The notes under the pieces are model-generated. The model saw nothing but the letters and a program-made list of their open reading frames with translations. It searched no databases and was not told where the DNA came from. This document shows positions 35,704 through 45,842 of a stretch of 45,842 nt of DNA, piece after piece. Both the position numbers and the translations under genes were made by a program. The DNA is taken from contig NZ_JAGQBW010000021.1 in the NCBI RefSeq assembly GCF_024345835.1, positions 1 to 45,842 of the forward strand, given 5' to 3'. Every line of letters begins with the position of its first letter. Position 1 is the first letter of the stretch. The stretch comes from Synechococcus sp. HJ21-Hayes (GTDB lineage: Bacteria; Cyanobacteriota; Cyanobacteriia; PCC-6307; Cyanobiaceae).

Positions 35704-35874
35704 GCACGGGATTGGTGACCTGCCCATCCAATCGCCAGCATGGCCGGCGGGGTGTGGCGGTTATGGCCGTTTTGGGTTTGTTTTGGCTGGCTTGCTGCTG
35801 CAGCCGCACAAGCGGGCAAATCTGCAGCTTTCCTGATCTCGCCGGCGCGGCTGCAAGAGCTAACGGTTGGAAAA

Positions 35875-35959
35875 CGGAGGGGGTGGGATTCGAACCCACG
35901 GAGGCTTTCACCTCGCTGGTTTTCAAGACCAGAGCCATCAACCACTCGACCACCCCTCC
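35875..35959 (-). tRNA. trnS-UGA: tRNA-Ser (anticodon UGA)
   Basis: On the minus strand: acceptor GGAGGGG pairs with CCCCTCC before discriminator G; anticodon arm CTGGT-CTTGAAA-ACCAG with anticodon TGA; a long variable arm typical of class II tRNA; T-arm GTGGGTTCGAATCCCAC. CCA is not encoded. 85 nt. It marks the core side of the island boundary. Confidence 0.96.
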
Positions 35960-36091
35960 AGGGGTTGACCCCATAGGGGCACACTCATTCTTCCACGGGG
36001 ATTGAAGCCTGGAGAGGCTTGCGACTGAGACTCGTGAGACCTGTGGCCATGCTTCGGGTAGAACGCTGCGGCCTGGTGGGCCGCCGGATCC

Positions 36092-36253: not shown

Positions 36254-36301
36254 AGCTTCAGTTCTCCGGTTTGGCCAGCGGCATCAGGCACTTGTTCATG
36301 C

Positions 36302-36333: not shown

Positions 36334-36395
36334 AGACCCTCCAACATGACTTATGAAGTGACTTATCCTTCTGAGCCCCTTGGTTTGTGCTCAGC

Positions 36396-37661
36396 ATGGG
36401 TCGTCGTTTGGCGGGCCCGGTCCGACTCCAAAACAGTGGTCCGAATTGGTACGCCCGTCTGACCGTCAAGCCGTCGCTGAGGCCTATAGCTGGCTGTACG
36501 CGTCTTCTCCGGAGCCTGGGTACCACCGACCATTCGATCGCCCTCCAACGCTGGCCAGAGGCTTACAAGGCTCTGGAGCAGGAACTGCAGCTACGGATCC
36601 AGCAGACAAACGCCGATACCCAGCGCCGCAGGGCCTCGATACGGGCAATGCTTCCACTCGTATGGGATTGCCCTCAGGGCTTGACCTCCGTCGAATGGAC
36701 CGAAAACCTGACTGGTGAGCGGCTGGACCATCCAGATGACGCCTCTCCGCTCTTCGAGGAGACCTGGGCAGCCCTTGATGCAAAGCGGCCCCTCAGTCTC
36801 AACTGGCCGGAGTTGGTCAACCTTCACGCTGAGGCCATCGCCAGACGGCGAGGAGAATCACTTTCCCAGTCCTGGTTCAAGGCAGCCAGGCAAGCGGTGA
36901 GCCGTGTCATTGAGGTAAATGAATTGCCCGACACCATCACGAAGGAGCAAATTCGGTCATTGATGGAGCAGCTTAGAACCAAAGGTTTAAGTGATAAGAC
37001 TGTCTCTACTCAGTTAGGCATTCTCCAATCGCTCATCCAAACTGGGATTGAGGAAGACAGTCTGACGCTTGCTACCAACCCGTTCCGCAGTGTCCGCTTT
37101 TCCGCCAGCACCAAGGAACAGGACCGCTATCTGCCGTTTGACTTGAAGATTCAGTTGCCATTGCTGCTCACTGAGACGGAACACGCTTGGGTTTTTGAGT
37201 TGCTCTGCACTACTGGACTGCGGATCGGGGAGCTGTTGAACCGACGACAAGGTGATATTCAGGGCCAGATGCTGGTGATTGGCAGAACACCTGATTGGAA
37301 ACCAAAGACCAAATCTAGTTACCGCAGGGTCCCAATCCCCTTGCACCTGCTAGGCCATATGAAGGATCTGATTCCCGTCGCGTCGCCTGGTGCATGGGAG
37401 CAGCGTCTAAGGCCTCAGATCAGAAATTTGTTTGACGACAAGCAGCTTGTGGTCCATAGCTGCCGTCATACCTTCAAAAGTCTCTCCCGCAAGGTGGGGA
37501 TGCCATCTGATGTTTCGGACGAGATTGATGGGCACAAGAAGAAAGATGTTTCTACTATCAGCGATCACTATGGTGACTACCCAGATGAGGTTCTGATCAA
37601 GTGGGTTGATGTCGTGTCCAAGGAAGTTCGGTCACTTGTGTACGGATCAAGGCCCCAATAA
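36396..37661 (+). CDS. Tyrosine recombinase (phage-type integrase)
   Basis: 421 residues. An N-terminal basic region (AT-hook-like arm binding part uncertain), a core-binding helical domain (~155-230, TITKEQIRSLMEQLRTKG), and the catalytic domain with the full set: Arg276 in CTTGLRIGELL, Lys306 near KTKSSYRRVPI, His354-x2-Arg357 in VVHSCRHTF, His380 in IDGHKKKD and the nucleophile Tyr392 in ISDHYGDY. All catalytic residues are present, so it may be active. ATG at 36396 chosen; GTG at 36387 possible. Probably drives integration and excision of the island. Confidence 0.9.
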   Translation: MGRRLAGPVRLQNSGPNWYARLTVKPSLRPIAGCTRLLRSLGTTDHSIALQRWPEAYKALEQELQLRIQQTNADTQRRRASIRAMLPLVWDCPQGLTSVEWTENLTGERLDHPDDASPLFEETWAALDAKRPLSLNWPELVNLHAEAIARRRGESLSQSWFKAARQAVSRVIEVNELPDTITKEQIRSLMEQLRTKGLSDKTVSTQLGILQSLIQTGIEEDSLTLATNPFRSVRFSASTKEQDRYLPFDLKIQLPLLLTETEHAWVFELLCTTGLRIGELLNRRQGDIQGQMLVIGRTPDWKPKTKSSYRRVPIPLHLLGHMKDLIPVASPGAWEQRLRPQIRNLFDDKQLVVHSCRHTFKSLSRKVGMPSDVSDEIDGHKKKDVSTISDHYGDYPDEVLIKWVDVVSKEVRSLVYGSRPQ

Positions 37662-37834
37662 AGTAGTTTCTCGTAATGGCCTATCTTTCATGCAACTATC
37701 CCTCTACCGGCTCATCGCGACCGTTGGCCACGTCCCCTTCCCGTATCTCAATGACTACTCACACCTAACTGACTTCTTGACCCTCTGACCCACAGCTCTG
37801 ACTCCAATTCTAGCTGCCGACAGCCCCTACGTGC

Positions 37835-38029
37835 TTAAGAATTCCCGCGGAGCTGTTCTTGGTCAGATCGGTTGAGACCATAGTTAGAAAGACTCATCAC
37901 CGCAGAATGCCCGAGGAATAGCTCTAGTCCTGCCTGCATTCGAGTTGACAGCGCTAGATCTGTTCTTTGAATAGCGTTACGAGCGGTTATTGCTTTCAGG
38001 GCTCGCCTCAAGCAGCAGATGCTCACCAT
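37835..38029 (-). CDS. Doubtful small frame in the island
   Basis: 64 codons from ATG 38029, with GGAG-type sequence upstream (CCTCC on the plus strand). Contains KAITARNAIQRTDLALSTR and LELFLGHSAVMSLSNYGLN. No family; protein-like composition only. May be a remnant. Confidence 0.22.
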   Translation of the reverse strand: MVSICCLRRALKAITARNAIQRTDLALSTRMQAGLELFLGHSAVMSLSNYGLNRSDQEQLRGNS

Positions 38030-38282
38030 TGCCGCCCAGGAGGCTCTCTAGGGCCCTTAATGCGCCGTCCAGCCCTCTTCTATTCGAAACGTCATTAGAA
38101 CCTCTTGCAGTGGCTCCCTGGGGCCTCTAACAAATAGACGTCAGTGATTGGCAAAGGCTCTCAGAAATTGAACCACTGAGGGACAACTGGCGGCTGCTGA
38201 CGTGAAAGTGTGCGTCTTTTGGATCGGTACGCCACGCGAGGTCTTTGGTGCTGGATGCTGTCAATCAGCCGCTCCATCTCCT

Positions 38283-38461
38283 AGCTCAATACCCTAGTTC
38301 TTGCAGTGGTTCTGATCGATGACGGACTATTACAGGGGGGAAAGCTCAAATCCCTGCTGTGGCAGAGGCTGTGACCGATGGCTCACTATAACGGCGAGAA
38401 CAGCTCCAACCCTTGCTGTGGCAGTGGTTCTGGGTGACAACCGACTATAACGGGGGAATAG
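38283..38461. repeat. Three imperfect tandem repeats of about 60 bp
   Basis: Units at 38283-38342, 38343-38401 and 38402-38461. Each begins AGCTCMA, has a CTGTGGCAGTGGTTCTG-like core (CTTGCAGTGGTTCTG, CTGTGGCAGAGGCTGTG, CTGTGGCAGTGGTTCTG), and ends GACTATAACGGGGGAA or close. The second and third are most alike. Units abut without spacers. Role unknown: iteron-type sites, recombinase arm sites or small-RNA copies are possibilities. Confidence 0.75.
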
Positions 38462-39069
38462 GCCCCCCAAGAGTCTTGTACACACTGGGAACAGTGCTCG
38501 TCGGGTTGACCGGCTCCACTTGGGGCTCTGCTGCTTCGTCAAAGAAAAGACGTTAAAACTCCACGCCTGGAAACGTGGTTAAAGAAAGGTCTGGCTGCGA
38601 ATGCCCATTTGGGAGTAGCTCGTCAGACGGTTTCATTGAACCCAAGCACCAAGGACATCAGGCACCCTTGGCAGCAGCTGAATCAACGCTCGCATTTGAC
38701 GGTTGGAGAACCGGCGAATGACCCACTCCAAAGTTGAAGCCCGAACTGACGCATGACTGCGTTACGACGGGATACTGAAATCAACTTTGATGGTTCAAAG
38801 AGGAATCTACCAACTGTAGTCAGTTCATTTGAACCGGTCACCAGCGATGGTGGCAGTAGCTCTTCGATGCATCCGTCGTCCCCTCGACACGGCTGAGGGT
38901 CGAGAGTTGTGTTTCAAAGGGGCTGAGTTACAGGCGGAGCCACGCTGTGCGTGGAAGTTTCTCTTTGCACCATCCAAGTTGAATAGATATACAGCATCAG
39001 CTGTGTAGGGGGTGAGTAGAAGTGCACTCCAAGACAGGAGCTAGCACTGGTCCTCTGGTCTGCGTTGCT

Positions 39070-39161
39070 TGTGGACAACAACTTACATAAACACTTCACC
39101 ATCTACCAGGACCAGCGACCAGTAGGTGGTGTGGATTTTCCACGTGGAAAACTTATCCCAA
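39070..39161. promoter_or_regulatory. Palindrome and DnaA-box-like cluster (candidate operator or replication origin)
   Basis: TTTTCCACGTGGAAAA (39136-39151) is a perfect 16-bp palindrome, 12/16 identical to the bacterial parS consensus. Around it are 9-mers near the DnaA box TTATCCACA on either strand: TGTGGACAA (39070-39078), TGTGGATTT (39130-39138) and TTATCCCAA (39153-39161). The last touches the ATG at 39162. Sequence facts are direct; function is inference. Confidence 0.4.
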
Positions 39162-39983
39162 ATGAACCTAGTAGAACAACTAAATCCAAGGCGTGAGGAT
39201 GGCGGTCTTGACGGCCGATACACCGAGCTGGCCAAGCAGATCATTGGTGCTATCAGCCGTGAAACCGTCTCCGATCTGAATGAGCTATTTCATCAATCAA
39301 ATGCTATTCAGACTCAGTTTTCAAGGGCAGGACTGAGATTCGTCATCGGTGTCTTCCAGGTTGAGATGGAGGACTGGCAGCGTAAAGCTTTCAAGAAGCA
39401 GCTCCGATATCTGCTGCAGGAATGTGGCTTCAAGCCATCTATGACAACAAAGCTAATAGCTGCAGGTGAGTTTGTGGCTGGTGAGCTTCCTCTTGGAGAT
39501 TACAACCCAGACTTCGATGGACCAAGCGAGGAGTTGTACAAGCAAGAGCATGACTTCTATCTTCGCTATCTAAAGGGATATGGTGTTGGCTCTCTGTACC
39601 TACTATCCCAGATGGACTACCGCGGCAGGATTGAAGCTAGGCAGCACTACAACGAGACGAATGATCGTTACAACACGAGGGAGCTTGAGGTATTGAAGCA
39701 GCAGTACCCCCGATGGTCAGCTGACCATCGAGCTGGGAAAAGGCAACACAACACTGACCAATACCCACTTCAACAGCAACTAGGACAGCTTGAACCAGCT
39801 GTGGACACTTACCAACTCAGTACTGATGAAATGCTCGATCAGTTCGTACTGCTTGCTCAATCGATTAATTGGTCTGCCGTTGGAACTCACACAGAAGCTC
39901 GCCAGCTGCTCGCCTCCATCGGGCCGACTCTGAGCTTCATATCGGACCTCGCTCACGAATCGCCGTATTTTCAAACCATTTGA
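39162..39983 (+). CDS. Island protein of unknown function (possible DNA-binding or replication role)
   Basis: 273 residues from ATG 39162 (a start at 39126 would run through the palindrome). Mostly helical. N-terminal helices DGRYTELAKQIIGAISRETVS, a basic segment DWQRKAFKKQLRYLLQECGF followed by KPSMTTKLIAAGEFVAGELP, which reads like a helix-turn-helix, then an aromatic, charged middle (EEQHDF-like, LRYLKGYGVGSLYLL) and an acidic C-terminus. No family recognised. The palindrome and DnaA-like boxes directly upstream suggest autoregulation or replication initiation, but this is inference. Codon use is island-like. Confidence 0.6.
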   Translation: MNLVEQLNPRREDGGLDGRYTELAKQIIGAISRETVSDLNELFHQSNAIQTQFSRAGLRFVIGVFQVEMEDWQRKAFKKQLRYLLQECGFKPSMTTKLIAAGEFVAGELPLGDYNPDFDGPSEELYKQEHDFYLRYLKGYGVGSLYLLSQMDYRGRIEARQHYNETNDRYNTRELEVLKQQYPRWSADHRAGKRQHNTDQYPLQQQLGQLEPAVDTYQLSTDEMLDQFVLLAQSINWSAVGTHTEARQLLASIGPTLSFISDLAHESPYFQTI

Positions 39984-40012
39984 GGACCAGTCCACCAAGT
40001 CAACAATCAGTT

Positions 40013-40171
40013 ATGAGAAATCACCAAGCTCGTCACGACTATGTTCCTCACATCCGCCATTGGAGTCCAGGCCTGATTGCGATTACTGCAAAGGCGCGTA
40101 TTGAATTCCTGCTTGGATTGTCAAATAGGTCTGATGCTCAAGCGATGATTGACGAATGGGTACTGAGTTGA
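40013..40171 (+). CDS. Small island protein (52 aa), doubtful
   Basis: 52 residues from ATG 40013, starting RNHQARHDYVPHIRHWSPGL and ending in a helix KARIEFLLGLSNRSDAQAMI. It follows the 273-aa gene by 29 bp in the same direction, so may be co-transcribed. No family recognised; evidence is only the open frame and composition. Confidence 0.3.
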   Translation: MRNHQARHDYVPHIRHWSPGLIAITAKARIEFLLGLSNRSDAQAMIDEWVLS

Positions 40172-40350
40172 GACTTTTTCCTCGCTTTGCATCTGCTTCA
40201 TCCAAGTAACCATGGCTGAACCAATCTGGAGTACGTCATTGCTTTCCATTATCCTCATCAGGCAGCCACGCTCTGCCAAAAGGGAAGTCTAATCAGGCTT
40301 CTGACATCTGCTTTGGCGGGCTTGCTGTAGCAAGGGATTGCTCATGTTCT

Positions 40351-40530
40351 CTAGTCCCCTATTCGAAGTGTTCGTGGGGATGAAGAGGCCTCAAGTTGTC
40401 TGGCAAATTGGATCAGGATCTGCTGAATGCTGTTGTCCGCGGCGATTTCCTGGATCGTCTTGCGGTCACTGATCGCGTCCATGGCGACTCTGGCCTTGAA
40501 CTCAGGGCTTTGCGTGTGGCGCTTGCTCAT
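40351..40530 (-). pseudogene. IS3-family transposase OrfA remnant
   Basis: 59 codons from ATG 40530. The first 33 match the IS3 OrfA start closely (SKRHTQSPEFKARVAMDAIS, RKTIQEIAAD), then the normal helix-turn-helix end (…QWKRQLLDG) is garbled to LIQFARQLEASSSP and a stop follows. OrfB is absent. Upstream on the minus strand lies the left-end-like segment TGCCCCTGAAAGGGGC. So only about 250 bp of one end of an insertion sequence remain. Confidence 0.75.
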
Positions 40531-40669
40531 GGGTAGGAGCCCCTTTCAGGGGCAGTACCCCGCCTCAGATGTTAACGATGGGCCCAGTCCATAAGACCAG
40601 ATGCCCCCACCACCAGCCACCAAACCTCACTCGGCGGCCAACAGCTGATCCGCCGTTTATCTAGCGCAC

Positions 40670-40701
40670 TTGACAATGATCTCATGAGACACACTTAGGA
40701 T
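40670..40701 (+). promoter_or_regulatory. Candidate promoter with internal 10-bp palindrome
   Basis: TTGACA (40670-40675), then TCTCATGAGA palindrome (40680-40689), then TAGGAT (40696-40701) with a 20-bp spacer, longer than ideal. A Shine-Dalgarno-like GGGAG lies before the ATG at 40725. The palindrome is placed where a repressor would block the promoter. Confidence 0.35.
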
Positions 40702-40724
40702 GCAAAAGGTGACAGGGAGAAACG

Positions 40725-41333
40725 ATGAAGTACTCACGCTTCTGGCCACTTTTTGGCATACAGGCTATTGCCATGAGAGCTACAGTCGTAGCTGCTTTCA
40801 ATGTCACGTCTCACATTCCATTGCAATCCGTTCTTCCTTTCCCCGGCAGGATTTTCTCCCCTTTGGGTTTATTAAGTCAGAAGCCCCTTAATGGCACAAA
40901 AGCAGAGCGTGTTCTCGAGGATGATGGGATGGACATTGTCAATGTTCGAAAGTGCCTCGAACAGGAAGTCCAAACGCCGCTGCGCAGTGAAGACGATTCG
41001 CTTAAGCAGGTCATCAGGGACTTGATGCTCAAATGCGTTGAAAGAACAGGCTTGCGCAATGCATGGGTAGTGGGGCTTCCATTCACCGTTGCCATCCATG
41101 CGAAAACCAATAAGGAGGTTCAACTTAAATATTTCTGTTCTGATGTCTGCCCGACCATGGGCCGAGTTTTCGCAACTCTTGCTGGCGTTTCAAAGAAGGA
41201 GTGCTGCGCCCTAGGCCAATTGCCTATTACGGATTCTGCATGGGGTGGCTACATAGGATGCCAACCACTCGAACTCGTTTCTGACTTGGACAAGAAGTAC
41301 ACAAGCTGTTCTACTCTTAGTCAGCCGAATTAA
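40725..41333 (+). CDS. Island protein with Cys-rich C-terminal domain, unknown function
   Basis: 202 residues. The N-terminal ~50 residues are hydrophobic and weakly signal-like (WPLFGIQAIAMRATVVAAFN). A charged helical part follows (ERVLEDDGMDIVNVRKCLEQ), then a conserved-looking domain: VGLPFTVAIHAKTNKEVQLKYF strands, CSDVCPTMGRVF, KKECCALGQLPITDS and AWGGYIGCQPLEL. The spacing of six cysteines in this last part suggests disulfides or a metal site, and I recall similar CSDVCP / GGYIGC pairs in uncharacterised bacterial proteins but cannot name a family. Good RBS (GGGAGAAACG). It has its own candidate promoter. Confidence 0.55.
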   Translation: MKYSRFWPLFGIQAIAMRATVVAAFNVTSHIPLQSVLPFPGRIFSPLGLLSQKPLNGTKAERVLEDDGMDIVNVRKCLEQEVQTPLRSEDDSLKQVIRDLMLKCVERTGLRNAWVVGLPFTVAIHAKTNKEVQLKYFCSDVCPTMGRVFATLAGVSKKECCALGQLPITDSAWGGYIGCQPLELVSDLDKKYTSCSTLSQPN

Positions 41334-41775
41334 TCAGTAGGTCATTAGTGCTCCTTGCCTTCTAGTCTGAAGGGCTGCCCAGACCTTCACGGTGATTGGA
41401 TAATCCTGGGCTCTCGGGGTGGCTACTATCAGCCTTCGCGGCATGGCGACGCTGAGGTCTTTGCAAGCTAGACCTCAGCAGCACCGGCTGACGCGACGGC
41501 TGAGGGAGAGCTGGAGGATCACCGTAGCCAGCAGATCAAGTTGGTCAGCAGCTCCTGAGACTTAGGGATAAACCGGCTAGCCAGTGAAGTCAACCAAGAT
41601 CCCCGTATACGAAGCAAGAATACCTCACTTGCAAGCGTCTTTCAGGCAGACATGCAGCCTCAAAACCCAAATCAATAAACTGACATTATTTAGTAGATTA
41701 CAGCCTATTAAGCCAGCCCACTGATGCAGAACTCGATGAATACGTTGGGGATACAGCTCTTCACGGGACACGGTA
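41334..41775. other. 440-bp non-coding stretch with a perfect hairpin
   Basis: No credible frame. The main feature is GCTGAGGTCT (41451-41460) and AGACCTCAGC (41470-41479), a perfect 10-bp stem with a 9-base loop and no U-tract. Could be a relic of a mobile-element end or a structured RNA. Confidence 0.5.
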
Positions 41776-42225
41776 ATGAAGCCTTTAGGCATAGCCTTAG
41801 CATTTGCATCCTTACTCATGGCTTCTGCACCAGCAGCACTTGCTGTCTACACCTGCAGCGACTCTGGATGGTGCGAACTTGAACGCAAACACAATGGAAA
41901 GACGATATTAATCCTGCCCCTTGAGGATTCAGGTCGGTATCGATCATTTAAAATACGAATTGACGAAGAATCAGCGAAAGCATCGGCTGATTGTAAAGAG
42001 TGGATGCTCAGGATTTCCGGTGAGGATGTCTACAAGGAGTATGCCCCTGAATCAGCAGAAAACGAAGCTCTGTCAGTTGTATGTCGCAAGGGAATCTCAA
42101 GTGGTGGGCTTGGCGGAGGCTTTTCAGAACCAGACACTAAGGATAGCAAGGGGGCTGATGACTCGACAAAAGACAGATCTCGTGAGCCATTAATTCACGT
42201 GATTCTGGATTCCATATTCCATTAA
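41776..42225 (+). CDS. Secreted island protein A
   Basis: 149 residues. Signal peptide (KPLGIALAFASLLMASAPAALA, cleavage before VYT at ~24), then a strand-rich domain with four cysteines (YTCSDSGWCEL, ADCKEW, VVCRKG) likely forming disulfides. It ends in a Gly/Ser/Asp/Lys-rich linker (SSGGLGGGFSEPDTKDSKG) and a short hydrophobic tail (LIHVILDSIFH). Periplasmic or exported. No family recognised. It precedes another signal-peptide gene by 19 bp, so the two are probably an operon. Confidence 0.65.
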   Translation: MKPLGIALAFASLLMASAPAALAVYTCSDSGWCELERKHNGKTILILPLEDSGRYRSFKIRIDEESAKASADCKEWMLRISGEDVYKEYAPESAENEALSVVCRKGISSGGLGGGFSEPDTKDSKGADDSTKDRSREPLIHVILDSIFH

Positions 42226-42244
42226 ATACTGTATTCAGAAGTCA

Positions 42245-43063
42245 ATGAAAGTGCTATTGCTGCTGTCGCGAATTGCACTCTTGCCATTTGCCATCCTGCA
42301 TCCAGGAGCAGCAAGTGGTAACGAATACAATGAAGGAGTAAATGCCTACTGCACGGTTGCCCAAAAGCAGATTGCTCAACTTTCAGAGGACATCAGAACA
42401 GCGCCAGAGAAATGTAACCAGATGTACCACAGTCATCCAAGGTGGAAAGCGCAGTGCATTGCAAATATACCTCGATGGTCACAAGAAGCTATTGAGTTAA
42501 TTAGGAGGAATGTGCCCTCTTTAGCCTTGTGTCGATTGGACTACGGCAGTTTAACGCCCTATATGCGGCGGAGTTCCAATCTCACTCCGTTCTCGGCGCC
42601 TGAAGCCATCAGAAACCCTAAGGTTGACGAGCAAACCGAAGAGGGAGAAAAGAAGTCGATCGAAGAAAGGATGAATAACGAGCAGAGAGAGTTTGTAGCG
42701 CTATTCAAAGCAAGTGCTAAAGTCTCAACAGGTTTTGACAGGCTTGAAGCTACTGTCAACGCAACATTAAAGACTCGAGATAGCCTAAAGAATCCGGCAG
42801 CAGTTGTCAGGGGGACTGGCTTTGGGCGAGTCTTGTCAAAGGCAAGTCCTACTTCTATTGCAGAGCAGGTGTACGATGAATACCTGGAGAAAGGATCAGA
42901 AGCTGCGATTGAAAGCGCGAAGGATGTCCAGCTTCAAACACTGAAAATTCGCGTCATAGAGATGTGTGAGCTCAATAGACCTATGCTCAGGAAAGGAGAT
43001 GGAGATGTTGTTGATGCGATCAGGTCATATGCCAGATCGGTAAGAGTCAACAATTGTCCATAG
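42245..43063 (+). CDS. Secreted island protein B
   Basis: 272 residues. Signal peptide (KVLLLLSRIALLPFAILHPGAASG, cleavage ~25), then a helical mature protein with cysteines at CTVAQKQ, CNQMYHSH, KAQCIANIP and LCRLDYG, and a late pair (MCELNRP, NNCP at the very end). The middle is charged and coiled-coil-like (EQTEEGEKKSIEERMNNEQREF). No family recognised. It probably acts outside the cytoplasm together with the upstream secreted protein. Converges on the autotransporter gene across 199 bp. Confidence 0.65.
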   Translation: MKVLLLLSRIALLPFAILHPGAASGNEYNEGVNAYCTVAQKQIAQLSEDIRTAPEKCNQMYHSHPRWKAQCIANIPRWSQEAIELIRRNVPSLALCRLDYGSLTPYMRRSSNLTPFSAPEAIRNPKVDEQTEEGEKKSIEERMNNEQREFVALFKASAKVSTGFDRLEATVNATLKTRDSLKNPAAVVRGTGFGRVLSKASPTSIAEQVYDEYLEKGSEAAIESAKDVQLQTLKIRVIEMCELNRPMLRKGDGDVVDAIRSYARSVRVNNCP

Positions 43064-43262
43064 CTTAGGTTTAATGTCAGAATAAAGTACTGACGGGTCT
43101 GTGCTCCGACCGAAAGGGGCTACGGGTCGGCGTCGAAGACCTGCTAGTGACGATATGGACATAGGATCCTTCGGTGGCCTCAACTCCTCGGGATGAACTG
43201 CTGGCGTTGGGGCGTCAAGTTCTCACACCTACATGTGTGACGTACTAACGACTGCTGGATGC
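43064..43262. other. Intergenic region with two stems between convergent genes
   Basis: CCGACC/GGTCGG (43106-43130) and TCACAC/GTGTGA (43223-43240) are perfect 6-bp stems; neither has a U-tract. Nothing else seen. Confidence 0.35.
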
Positions 43263-45296
43263 TTAAAACTTCACACTAAGCCCAGCCCAGCCACCACCGA
43301 CATAATTAATACCGTTGCCAGCTGCTGCGTCTCCTCTGATTTTCAAGGCAACTGCATTAGACAGGTCAATCGTGACACCTGCTGATACTGCAATGGCATT
43401 ACGGCTTACTGCCTCTGTTGGTACGGACAGTGACTGCCCAATCAACGTGACTCCAACGGTATCGTCACCAACGACTCCTCGATACATGTAGCCAACCTGA
43501 CCCTCGAGAACCATCTTGGTGTTTTTGCCAAGCGTTGTTTTCAGCGTTCTCCGGGTGCCGACACCAACAAAGCTTTGGCCGATGGCAACATTCCGTCCAT
43601 TCACCGTTGCATTGGCAGACCCCCCACCAGATTCTGTATAGGCTCCCATCCATTGTTGGGCGTAACGCAGCCGAGCGGTGGGCAGAACGCTCCAGCCTTG
43701 AATGTCACCTGCGTTGACTGTGATTCCTGCCTCTGGTGCGAACCACCAGCCTTGATAGGTGGAATTGGTGCTGGAGTTTCCGAGATAAGCGAGGTTGTCA
43801 TTGACAAATCTCTGCTGCTGAAAACTCTGAACACCTCCATAGAGAGCAAAATCAACCGATGTATCTCCCCAGCGTTTTTGACCGTACAATCCCAGGAATC
43901 CGCCATCACTGCTGTTGTTGTAAGATTGTATTGTGATGCCGTCAGCAGTCAGATTCGTTTGACTGTATCCACCGAGTAGGCCAAGTGTCAGATCTTTGCT
44001 GCGTTTGGCGTCGTATCCCATCGCAATACCAGAGAGAATATGGTGCCGTTCAAGTGTGTCGGTAGTGCCTGAGTAAGACGACGTCATCCCAAAGCCTCTG
44101 GCCCACAAGGGATGCTTGCCGTCTATACCATTGAAGCGCCCCGGAATCAATGACGAAACGGTGTTCGTTACGTCAGCCAGAGCATCCGATGAGCTCGCGA
44201 AGATAGTGGGATCGTATGTAGCTGCCTGTTGTGCGGCCCTATTGATGAAGACAGGCACAGAACCGGAACTGTTAATGCTGCTCACGCTGCCTTCAAATGT
44301 CAGCAGCTGTGAAAAGTTTGCGCTCGGCGAGATATTGACAGTCCCTCCGGTACCCATATTGATTCTGCCGCCTAAGAAGCCATTGACCACATTCAGCGTA
44401 TTTCCAGAGCCATTGAAGAGCACTGCGTATGACTGCTTGCTAACAATGCTGCCTGAAGTCGTCACGGTATTTGAACTGCCGACGACAGCGACGCCAGCAG
44501 CTAAGTTGCCGGATGAGGAGATCGAACCCGAGTTTGCAACCGTATTCGAAACTCCTGTCACAAAGATGCCTGCCGCGGAGTCTCCCGTGGTTGTGATTGT
44601 TCCAGAGTTATTAATGGTGTTCGCGTTGGACGGTCCAGCAAGTGAGATACCATCTGAGGCGAAGCCGTAGGTGCTTATCGTACCTGTATTTGCAATCGTG
44701 TTTGAGTTGCCTTCGCCGCCTATACCCGCGCTGTTTCTCCCATAGGTGCTGATGACCCCGGAATTGTTGATGATATTGAAACTGCCTAATGAGGAGATCC
44801 CGTAGCTTTGTTCGCCGTTTGTTCTGATCGTTCCCTGGTTGAGGATTGTATTGAAGGAGCCTATAGCATTGATTCCGTCCGACCCTGTTGTGCCTGGGGC
44901 TATAGAGCCGCTTGTGCTAATCAAGCCTGAGTTAATGATGATGTTGGAATTGCCTTGGGCATTTGCCCCAATCGAGTTGTTCCCTGAAGTGTTTATCGAT
45001 CCAATGTTGGTAATTCTGTTGTTGCCATTGGTGGCGTTAATCCCGTTCGCGCTTGTCCCGCTCGTGCTTACCGATCCAGAGCTCGTAATGGTTAATGTGT
45101 CGTCACCGTTCAGTGGAGGGGTCGTCGGCCCCTGAGTCCCGGTGACAGAGTTGTTAATTATTGTTGTATCCGCAAGTGCCAATTTTGGGATTGAAATCAC
45201 AAGGCCGCACAACGCGGCTGATTTGATTGCCTTGCCGAGAACCTGGATTTTGCTTGTCTTGTTTCTGCTTGTGTGGACTTTTTTCCCCTGGTACAC
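43263..45296 (-). CDS. Autotransporter (type Va) with 25-residue passenger repeats
   Basis: 677 residues. A long basic N-region and signal peptide (1-~43: KTSKIQVLGKAIKSAALCGL… ending PKLALA-D) precede a passenger (~44-390), Asn/Ser/Thr/Gly-rich, built of about eight ~25-residue repeats of the type NSGxIxTxGxxxxGIxxxGxSNTI, expected to form a beta-helix. The C-terminal autotransporter barrel (~395-677: HPLWARGFGMTSSYSG, GGYSQTNLTADG, GWAGLSVKF) ends with the Phe typical of outer-membrane proteins. Inserted in the outer membrane, it displays or releases the passenger. All parts are intact. Unusual in picocyanobacteria. Low-GC, island-like codon use. Confidence 0.88.
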   Translation of the reverse strand: MYQGKKVHTSRNKTSKIQVLGKAIKSAALCGLVISIPKLALADTTIINNSVTGTQGPTTPPLNGDDTLTITSSGSVSTSGTSANGINATNGNNRITNIGSINTSGNNSIGANAQGNSNIIINSGLISTSGSIAPGTTGSDGINAIGSFNTILNQGTIRTNGEQSYGISSLGSFNIINNSGVISTYGRNSAGIGGEGNSNTIANTGTISTYGFASDGISLAGPSNANTINNSGTITTTGDSAAGIFVTGVSNTVANSGSISSSGNLAAGVAVVGSSNTVTTSGSIVSKQSYAVLFNGSGNTLNVVNGFLGGRINMGTGGTVNISPSANFSQLLTFEGSVSSINSSGSVPVFINRAAQQAATYDPTIFASSSDALADVTNTVSSLIPGRFNGIDGKHPLWARGFGMTSSYSGTTDTLERHHILSGIAMGYDAKRSKDLTLGLLGGYSQTNLTADGITIQSYNNSSDGGFLGLYGQKRWGDTSVDFALYGGVQSFQQQRFVNDNLAYLGNSSTNSTYQGWWFAPEAGITVNAGDIQGWSVLPTARLRYAQQWMGAYTESGGGSANATVNGRNVAIGQSFVGVGTRRTLKTTLGKNTKMVLEGQVGYMYRGVVGDDTVGVTLIGQSLSVPTEAVSRNAIAVSAGVTIDLSNAVALKIRGDAAAGNGINYVGGGWAGLSVKF

Positions 45297-45480
45297 GAAG
45301 CTTTCTCAATCCCGCTAATTTTGCCGTTCAGAATATGCGTGGTCTACTAAGCCACTCTTCGAACTGACCCTATTGTTGTTTCGTTGGCCTGAGCCAGCAT
45401 CAGTGGTTCAACTGCCCCTAGCGGCCACCCGCTTGACCCCGCAAACATCTATAGGCATTCTGCTGCTTTTGGTTCGAGGA

Positions 45481-45699
45481 TCAGCGGTATCTCGCGGGCG
45501 TATTGATCAGGCAACCCGTTTCGTTAATCGCGATCCACATCTTGATGACGAAGGAGTGGTCTGCAGTTCGCAAGCAATCTAGTTGGTGCCATTCCAGAGC
45601 CAGTGTCCCATCCTTGGCCTTGAGCAGGTCTTTTATGGGGCGTTCATATTCTGTGACCCAAATCTCCGAATACCCATAATCATCGCCGGTTAGCTGCAA
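45481..45699 (-). CDS. Small hypothetical or truncated protein
   Basis: 72 codons from ATG 45699. Reads DDYGYSEIWVTEYERPIKDL, LALEWHQLDCLRTADHSFVI and MWIAINETGCLINTPARY: strand-rich and protein-like, lacking low-complexity runs. No family recognised. It lies at the right edge of the island and could be the remnant of a larger gene. Confidence 0.35.
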   Translation of the reverse strand: MQLTGDDYGYSEIWVTEYERPIKDLLKAKDGTLALEWHQLDCLRTADHSFVIKMWIAINETGCLINTPARYR

Positions 45700-45736
45700 T
45701 TACCCCCATGCCCGCCAGGGCTGATTCAAAGTGTGG

Positions 45737-45842
45737 TCACGGGTTGAGCTCTGGTTGTCGTCGCGCCATCGCCAGCAGTGCCTTGATGTCATGCATCACC
45801 GCTTGCAGGCCCTCGCGGATCGAGTCGAAACCGGCCAGGCGC
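45737..45842 (-). CDS. C-terminal end of a core gene (runs off window)
   Basis: The last 34 codons of a minus-strand gene, starting off the right edge: RLAGFDSIREGLQAVMHDIK then ALLAMARRQPELNP and a stop at 45737-45739. It looks like an amphipathic C-terminal helix. GC-rich codons show that core sequence has resumed. Too short to name. Confidence 0.55.
   Translation of the reverse strand, partial: RLAGFDSIREGLQAVMHDIKALLAMARRQPELNP

What the first reader, a model, noticed from the sequence alone, without database searches (positions are those of the whole stretch)
36396..45700. Integrase-linked island beside tRNA-Ser, with surface and secreted cargo
An apparently complete tyrosine recombinase starts 437 bp from tRNA-Ser(UGA). 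Beyond it about 9 kb differs from the rest in GC, gene density and gene content: three exported proteins (or more), a Cys-rich unknown, a repeat array and a palindrome/DnaA-like cluster. This resembles the tRNA-associated integrative elements (tycheposon-type) reported in Prochlorococcus, but with a different, surface-directed cargo. The tRNA faces the integrase with its 5' side and no att repeat was found by eye, so it may use another target or be decayed.
Basis: partly seen in the sequence, partly recalled or inferred. Interest (0 to 1): 0.6.

Follow-up and report, generated by a model that had tools for sequence, protein, structure and literature searches.

The report
Cyanobacterial island with phage-like promoters
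A 10-kb piece of mobile DNA has inserted itself into the end of a ribonucleotide reductase gene of a cyanobacterium; it and its relatives carry a structured RNA not found in the RNA family library, often behind repeats that look like start signals of viruses that infect such cyanobacteria, so these viruses may switch it on.

Summary
It is a ~10-kb element that its own tyrosine integrase put into the 3' end of nrdJ (class II ribonucleotide reductase), not into a tRNA. attL is window 36258-36295, a perfect 38-bp copy of the nrdJ end on contig C37; a 22-bp direct repeat lies inside each end; G019 has the empty site. tRNA-Ser is a bystander. The contig stops inside an IS whose 10-bp target duplication links C14 to C37. 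A second, interrupted nrdJ element sits in another genus.

Between integrase and ORF 39162 lies a ~500-nt non-coding stretch with strong covariation (40 of 47 pairs of its 5' domain change on both sides), unmatched in Rfam 15. A covariance model finds it in 13 of 160 hand-picked family genomes, five genera. In 8 of 9 such loci without a polymerase gene, T7-type promoter-like repeats lie just upstream, resembling a site inside cyanopodovirus RNA-polymerase genes; five other loci hold T7-like polymerase genes or remains and lack such repeats there. Best reading: a phage-responsive, satellite-like integrative element. Integration and RNA are well supported; activation by phage is inferred, and for this window alone the repeat match is modest.

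The parts
35874..35960 (-). tRNA-Ser(UGA): core gene beside nrdJ, a bystander, not the target
36258..36295 (+). attL core: 38-bp copy of the nrdJ 3' end (stop codon included); partner attR is C37:652-689, outside the window
36344..36365 (+). 22-bp direct repeat inside the left end (candidate arm-type integrase site); partner at C37:562-583
   Evidence: pattern (one base free, up to one mismatch) in 2 of 400 genomes, two copies in each, at the element ends
36387..37661 (+). tyrosine integrase, 424 aa
38321..38458 (+). array of three T7-type promoter-like repeats
   Evidence: two of the three score 13.5 and 12.3 with a matrix made only from cyanophage sites; one chance hit of 13.7 elsewhere on the contig
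38537..39057 (+). structured RNA, ~500 nt; 5' domain (model R1) 38557-38730
39097..39131 (.). palindrome between the RNA and the ORF, kept in G012 and G023
39162..39983 (+). backbone protein p39126 (ORF opens at 39126; ATG at 39162), relatives follow the RNA in other elements
   Evidence: no Pfam or PDB match
40351..40622 (-). IS remnant (HTH_Tnp_1-like ORF, E 0.06)
40725..41333 (+). Cys-containing ORF, 202 aa, no family found
41776..42225 (+). ORF, 149 aa, export signal by eye
42245..43063 (+). ORF, 272 aa, export signal by eye
43263..45296 (-). autotransporter, 677 aa, C-terminal beta-domain PF03797
45706..45715 (.). 10-bp word CCATGCCCGC, target duplication of the IS; second copy at the start of C37 after the IS end
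45716..45842 (.). end of a multi-copy IS that cuts the contig

Best explanation
A site-specific integrative element (9,974 bp, 11,226 bp with its inserted IS) that its own tyrosine integrase put into the 3' end of nrdJ; the 38-bp core restores the gene end, so the host keeps its ribonucleotide reductase. It belongs to a family of elements in picocyanobacteria that exchange integrases, targets and cargo but keep a module: T7-type promoter-like site(s), a structured RNA, and often a mostly helical protein (helix by prediction only). Inferred working: members without a polymerase stay quiet until a T7-like cyanophage infects; its single-subunit RNA polymerase reads the promoter-like array, makes the RNA (and perhaps the protein), and so starts the element's response, most likely satellite-like replication or escape with the helper. 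Members with their own T7-like polymerase would fire themselves from a different promoter. Shown: target, empty site, end repeats, conservation and covariation of the RNA, polymerase genes in relatives, similarity of the repeats to a phage site. Inferred: that the repeats are promoters, which polymerase reads them, what the RNA does, and any mobilisation.
For: nrdJ target and duplicated core; empty site in one 932-nt alignment to G019; end repeats in 2 of 400 genomes, only at element ends; a second nrdJ element in another genus; IS target duplication joins C14 and C37. RNA: covariation, 13 of 160 genomes. T7-like polymerases in relatives. Repeats match a place in 8 of 12 cyanopodovirus polymerase genes, and a matrix of those 8 phage sites finds 29 hits in 9,800 bp upstream of the RNA against 19 in 735,426 other positions of the same loci and 5 in 453,742 control positions. 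Hits upstream of the RNA in 8 of 9 loci without a polymerase, 0 of 5 with one (p 0.003). The Syn5 polymerase gene contains a Syn5 promoter (PMC3950665, passages).
Against: No transcription or infection data. In the window only two repeats score (13.5, 12.3) and an unrelated place on the contig scores 13.7. 4 of 12 phages show no such site, and the 8 positive sites are homologous coding positions, so they are not independent. Three polymerase-bearing loci have hits elsewhere: G339a a seven-hit array 5.5-6 kb upstream of the RNA, G120 two, G341 three. G013b has the RNA but no array. G150, with the same nrdJ integrase, and G001 gave no RNA match. Several backbone proteins are broken (G012, G013b by a stop, G013a cut). 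No packaging or capsid gene was recognised, so a satellite life is not shown.
Confidence: 0.55

Rival explanations
1. Defence reading: the array is a phage sensor, and the RNA or p39126 stops the infection when a T7-like phage polymerase appears; the element is a mobile anti-phage island whose surface cargo may also hinder adsorption.
For: Same array and RNA evidence as above; surface proteins among the cargo; no packaging genes recognised.
Against: No known toxin or defence domain found in the backbone or cargo proteins with Pfam, PHROGs or NCBIfam; PADLOC was not searched.
Confidence: 0.2
2. Replication reading: the polymerase transcript is the primer of a plasmid-like or T7-like origin, the RNA folding as a primer RNA, and the element replicates as a circle. 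It may add to the satellite reading rather than replace it.
For: T7-like transcription into a long conserved RNA; a weak RepB-RCR_reg match (E 0.0015, under its cut-off) in the small protein upstream of the RNA in G091. Primer transcripts at T7 and ColE1 origins are recalled.
Against: No replication initiator recognised; no evidence of a circular form.
Confidence: 0.15
3. The repeats are iterons or operators bound by an element protein, and the likeness to phage sites is convergence on a TATA-plus-G-rich word.
For: Tandem spacing in the window (about 60 bp); only part of the phages match.
Against: A matrix made from phages alone enriches about 114-fold upstream of the RNA on one strand; no hit of 15 or more in 453,742 control positions; absence beside the RNA in loci with a polymerase.
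Confidence: 0.07
4. Tycheposon-type tRNA element, or a decayed T7-like cyanophage provirus.
For: tRNA-Ser is 426 bp away; integrase followed by RNA polymerase is also the gene order in S-SRP01, S-CBP1 and P-SSP7.
Against: The target is nrdJ; T7-like cyanophages are reported to integrate in tRNA-Leu (PMC8776855, passages); the window integrase has no close phage relative in the two collections searched; no phage structural family in the cargo.
Confidence: 0.03

Closest known systems
Tycheposons of Prochlorococcus (original paper recalled, not in the library; description seen in passages of PMC10872708)
   Same: Picocyanobacterial integrative element with a tyrosine recombinase and cargo
   Different: Inserted in the end of a protein gene, not bounded by a tRNA; RNA-plus-promoter backbone
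T7-like cyanophages (S-SRP01, S-CBP1, P-SSP7, S-RIP1 and others)
   Same: Relatives of this element carry a T7-like polymerase 27-28% identical to theirs; the repeats resemble a site in their polymerase genes
   Different: About 10 kb against about 45 kb, no structural family recognised, other target gene
Phage satellites such as P4 or PICI (recalled)
   Same: Would work like them if a helper phage switches the element on
   Different: No packaging or capsid-changing gene recognised; switch would be the helper's polymerase; mobilisation not shown
Large structured RNAs of phages and mobile elements such as GOLLD and ROOL (recalled)
   Same: Long structured RNA of unknown function in a mobile element
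   Different: No match to any Rfam 15 family at E<=1 for window 37600-43300

Membership tests
Integrative element with tyrosine integrase | Intact integrase beside one end | tested here: met
Integrative element with tyrosine integrase | Duplicated target core and an empty site in a relative | tested here: met
   (right end on contig C37, joined through the IS duplication)
Integrative element with tyrosine integrase | Excision or transfer | not testable with these tools
   no reads or experiments; a related nrdJ element in another genus speaks for transfer
Tycheposon | tRNA gene at the border as target | tested here: not met
Tycheposon | Tyrosine recombinase | tested here: met
T7-like cyanophage provirus | Phage structural and replication genes | tested here: not met
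   PHROGs: integrase only, in the six island proteins scanned
T7-like cyanophage provirus | Integration in tRNA-Leu (PMC8776855, passages) | tested here: not met
Phage satellite | Dependence on a helper phage for mobilisation | not testable with these tools
   promoter-like repeats are indirect evidence only
Known Rfam RNA family | Covariance-model match | tested here: not met
   (window); in ten other loci only matches elsewhere or below cut-off
T7-like single-subunit RNA polymerase (relatives' gene) | PF00940 and PF14700 domains | tested here: met
   G301: both above cut-off; G341: PF00940 above, PF14700 below cut-off; G301 to T7 RNAP E about 1e-32

The most novel reading that the evidence does not exclude
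A family of small picocyanobacterial integrative elements uses an array of promoters that match those of several T7-like cyanophages as an antenna: whichever such phage infects, its own RNA polymerase fires the array and makes a new class of structured RNA that runs the element's (satellite or defence) response. Some members have a T7-like polymerase of their own instead.
Probability: 0.45. Interest if true: 0.92.

Novelty: new variant of a known kind. Interest (0 to 1): 0.8.

Why it matters
If right, it gives a testable rule for how a mobile element senses T7-like phages: through the phage's own polymerase. It adds a structured RNA that Rfam 15 does not match, T7-like polymerases carried in bacterial islands together with candidate promoters, and an integrase that targets nrdJ. 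Phages of this kind are important enemies of picocyanobacteria (recalled). I found no description of satellites in these hosts: the search for 'phage satellites', 'cyanobacteria', 'Synechococcus' and 'integrase' gave one paper, on another subject by its listing; most subscription papers are not in the library.

Tried and rejected
Tried and dropped: tRNA-Ser as target. Relatives of the integrase and of both backbone-protein forms in viral contigs: none. Viral-contig pattern scans for an RNA word (7 loci; nhmmer matches of 30 nt or less, E 0.29 or worse) and a promoter word (9 loci, one match each; taken as chance, not followed up). blastn of the RNA against phages and plasmids: none. AlphaFold of p39126 alone: mean pLDDT 38, not used. 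Two forms of the backbone protein profile to profile: probability 32%, kinship not claimed. PDB profiles: no significant match. The G241 RNA match (E 0.008) lies in the fusA operon and is rejected, but its row stayed in the alignment. Weak matches in G020, G185, G006 (E 0.07-0.84) not counted. Nine of 400 genomes have two matches to the nrdJ-end pattern: besides G000, G150 has a real element; G162, G179, G258 have a second nrdJ; G219 and G327 have nrdJ ends on two contigs; G140 and G290 have one nrdJ each, their other match not explained by nrdJ. The 160 genomes were chosen by me from those with handles, mostly larger genomes of likely genera, and include the four that gave the model; the 12 phages came from the top of two searches. 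Neither is a random sample.

Full report
WHAT IS THERE. The window is the whole of contig C14 of a 2.94-Mb genome in 39 contigs. GC is 0.62-0.70 from 3 to 36 kb and 0.47-0.54 from 37 to 45 kb. tRNA-Ser(UGA) lies at 35874-35960, minus strand, and an intact integrase ORF at 36387-37661.

THE TARGET IS nrdJ. A 38-bp stretch at 36258-36295 recurs at C37:652-689, where it is the last 38 bp, stop codon included, of an 801-codon gene that matches TIGR02505, adenosylcobalamin-dependent ribonucleoside-triphosphate reductase, at E 2e-274. In relatives the tRNA-Ser block and nrdJ are neighbours. The window's left flank joined to the C37 right flank gives one 932-nt alignment (82.9%) to G019, while the occupied halves align only up to, or only from, the core. 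So the 38 bp are attL and attR, and the tRNA is a bystander. A direct repeat, ACATGACTTATNAAGTGACTTA, sits inside each end; with up to one mismatch it occurs in 2 of 400 family genomes, two copies in each, at the element ends. The second genome, G150, belongs to another genus and has the same arrangement: tRNA-Ser, nrdJ-end copy, repeat, integrase start (81% identical), then contig end; and on another contig repeat plus nrdJ. Its integrase frame is cut short; similar ORFs near both ends of that contig suggest an IS. G150 and G001 gave no match to the RNA described below.

THE RIGHT END. The window stops inside a multi-copy IS that starts at 45716. The same IS end opens C37, and both flanks carry the 10-bp word CCATGCCCGC; an intact 1,242-bp copy on C4 also has 10-bp duplicated flanks. 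C14 and C37 are therefore best read as the two sides of one IS insertion, and the element as complete: 9,974 bp without the IS, 11,226 bp with it. No polymerase gene was found in it (window and C37:1-12000).

A STRUCTURED RNA. Island DNA 37600-43262 against 109 relatives gave a conserved non-coding stretch, window 38537-39046, in G013 (twice) and G023. Four sequences give a common fold with 26 of 141 pairs changed on both sides; with G091 as fifth, 36 of 151. A covariance model of the 5' domain (R1, 175 positions, five sequences) was run on 160 hand-picked family genomes: 15 matches at E <= 1e-5 in 13 genomes of five genera, ten of the matches not used for the model. On the 16-row alignment, one row of which was later rejected, 40 of 47 pairs have changes on both sides and 92.7% of cells pair, against 61.9% in shuffles and 28-43% when slid; this alignment is fitted to the model. 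A fold made afresh from eight of the ten new copies has 22 of 32 pairs compensated, and its main helices are those of the model. A second conserved word, UACAGGCGGAGCC, follows 189-196 nt on in the five model sequences and 23-73 nt on in five of the ten others; in the remaining five it was not found. So the middle of the RNA varies. Rfam 15 has no match at E <= 1 in window 37600-43300, nor to the RNA in ten loci with other copies.

NEIGHBOURHOOD. The six elements first examined (G000, G013 twice, G023, G012, G091) have a tyrosine integrase upstream and a p39126-type ORF downstream of the RNA; the ORF is cut or broken in G012, G013a and G013b. It comes in two forms whose kinship is unproven. 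Of the ten model-independent copies, six have a type-A relative next to the RNA (G012, G339 twice, G120, G197, G301) and in four none was found; in G306 the contig ends 331 nt after the RNA domain. Direct repeats bound four of five 40-kb regions searched: G012 and G013b share a target at the 5' end of a gene that looks by eye like a cysteine desulfurase, G013a uses the 5' end of another gene, G023 an unassigned site; G174 carries its RNA and an integrase beside a desulfurase-like gene of the same kind; G091 showed no such repeat. Cargo elsewhere includes an RTX-type protein in G013b and a surface-antigen/OmpW-like protein in G012.

PHAGE-TYPE TRANSCRIPTION. The G301 and G341 loci encode T7-like RNA polymerases without internal stops (811 and 831 aa; PF00940 E 4e-41 and 4e-34; G301 to T7 RNA polymerase E about 1e-32). 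G120 has a 74% identical frame with one internal stop, G339a a split one, G306 a fragment. The best-listed phage relatives of the G301 enzyme are cyanopodovirus polymerases, 27-28% identical. Just before the RNA, G339a, G120 and G301 share one promoter-like word, while most loci without a polymerase have one to several repeats with a TATAC-AGGGGGA-like core and a variable left half. A matrix of 23 such repeats (three from the window) has its best hit near +816 of the polymerase gene in 8 of 12 cyanopodoviruses (S-SRP01, S-CBP1, P-SSP7, S-RIP1, S-SBP1, S-CBP3, S-CBP4, and S-TIP37 at +555 of a gene annotated shorter), with 0 or 1 of 200 shuffles as good; P60, S-CBP42, S-TIP28 and P-SSP10 have no such hit. 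In S-CBP1 a further site (score 17.3) lies between two genes, the best minus-strand score being 15.1. The Syn5 promoter is ATTGGGCACCCGTAA, and the Syn5 polymerase gene contains one (PMC3950665, passages).

The reverse test uses a matrix of the 8 phage sites only: 29 hits (score 10 or more) in 9,800 bp upstream of the RNA on its strand, 19 in 735,426 other positions of the same 14 loci, and 5, none reaching 15, in 453,742 control positions. Loci with no polymerase in the stretch held have hits upstream of the RNA in 8 of 9 cases (G013b none; G163, a weak RNA match, one); loci with a polymerase in 0 of 5 (p 0.003; 0.0047 without G163). Against a simple rule, polymerase loci do have hits farther off: seven in an array of G339a at L216:1429-1875, two in G120, three in G341. 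The window has two hits, 13.5 and 12.3, and one hit of 13.7 elsewhere on the contig; with a matrix from other elements its first repeat is the best of all places in the window, 15.0 against 12.1. So the case for promoters rests on the family more than on this member. The 8 phage sites are homologous coding positions and count as one observation of place, though their left halves differ.

HOW IT PROBABLY WORKS. Shown: site-specific insertion that restores nrdJ, an intact integrase, a conserved structured RNA, repeats that look like a cyanophage site, polymerases in some relatives. Inferred: a T7-like phage brings the polymerase that fires the array, and the RNA then acts as primer, regulator or inhibitor. 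I put satellite-like behaviour first because the elements are small and cargo-bearing and some relatives carry the polymerase themselves; defence and primer-RNA readings remain open.

KNOWN OR NEW. It is an integrative element, but not a tycheposon (tRNA criterion not met) and not a T7-like cyanophage provirus (those are reported in tRNA-Leu, PMC8776855, passages). Searches of the held library: nrdJ with attachment site and integrase, 0 papers; single-subunit RNA polymerase with cyanobacteria and integrase, 0; phage satellites with cyanobacteria, Synechococcus and integrase, 1, off the subject by its listing; four wider ones, of whose results I saw only the listed part (15 of 7,812; 12 of 40; 8 of 96; 3 of 3), showed nothing on point. 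The original tycheposon paper was not among the 8 papers that hold the word.

Noticed in passing
L216 (G339:C11) 1429-1875: A second array of seven phage-promoter-like hits (scores up to 32), 5.5-6 kb upstream of the RNA, with several subtypes, one like the window's first repeat.
   Followed up: partly
G000:C23:14122-15957 (L167): A second autotransporter 67% identical to the island's in its main segment; relatives in 4 of 261 family genomes, this one included.
   Followed up: no
L171 10478-10963; L164 5125-5898: Related-looking small proteins directly upstream of the RNA in G091 and G013b; the first has a weak RepB-RCR_reg match (E 0.0015, under cut-off).
   Followed up: no
window 40351-40622: IS remnant inside the island, with copies of the stretch around 40416-40622 in many family genomes.
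   Followed up: no
L222 (G174), L164 (G013b), L166 (G012): The 5' end of a cysteine-desulfurase-like gene borders RNA-bearing elements in two genera.
   Followed up: partly
L202 (G120) 2069-2128; L214 (G163) 2709-2766: Glutamine-II riboswitch matches near two of the other RNA copies.
   Followed up: no
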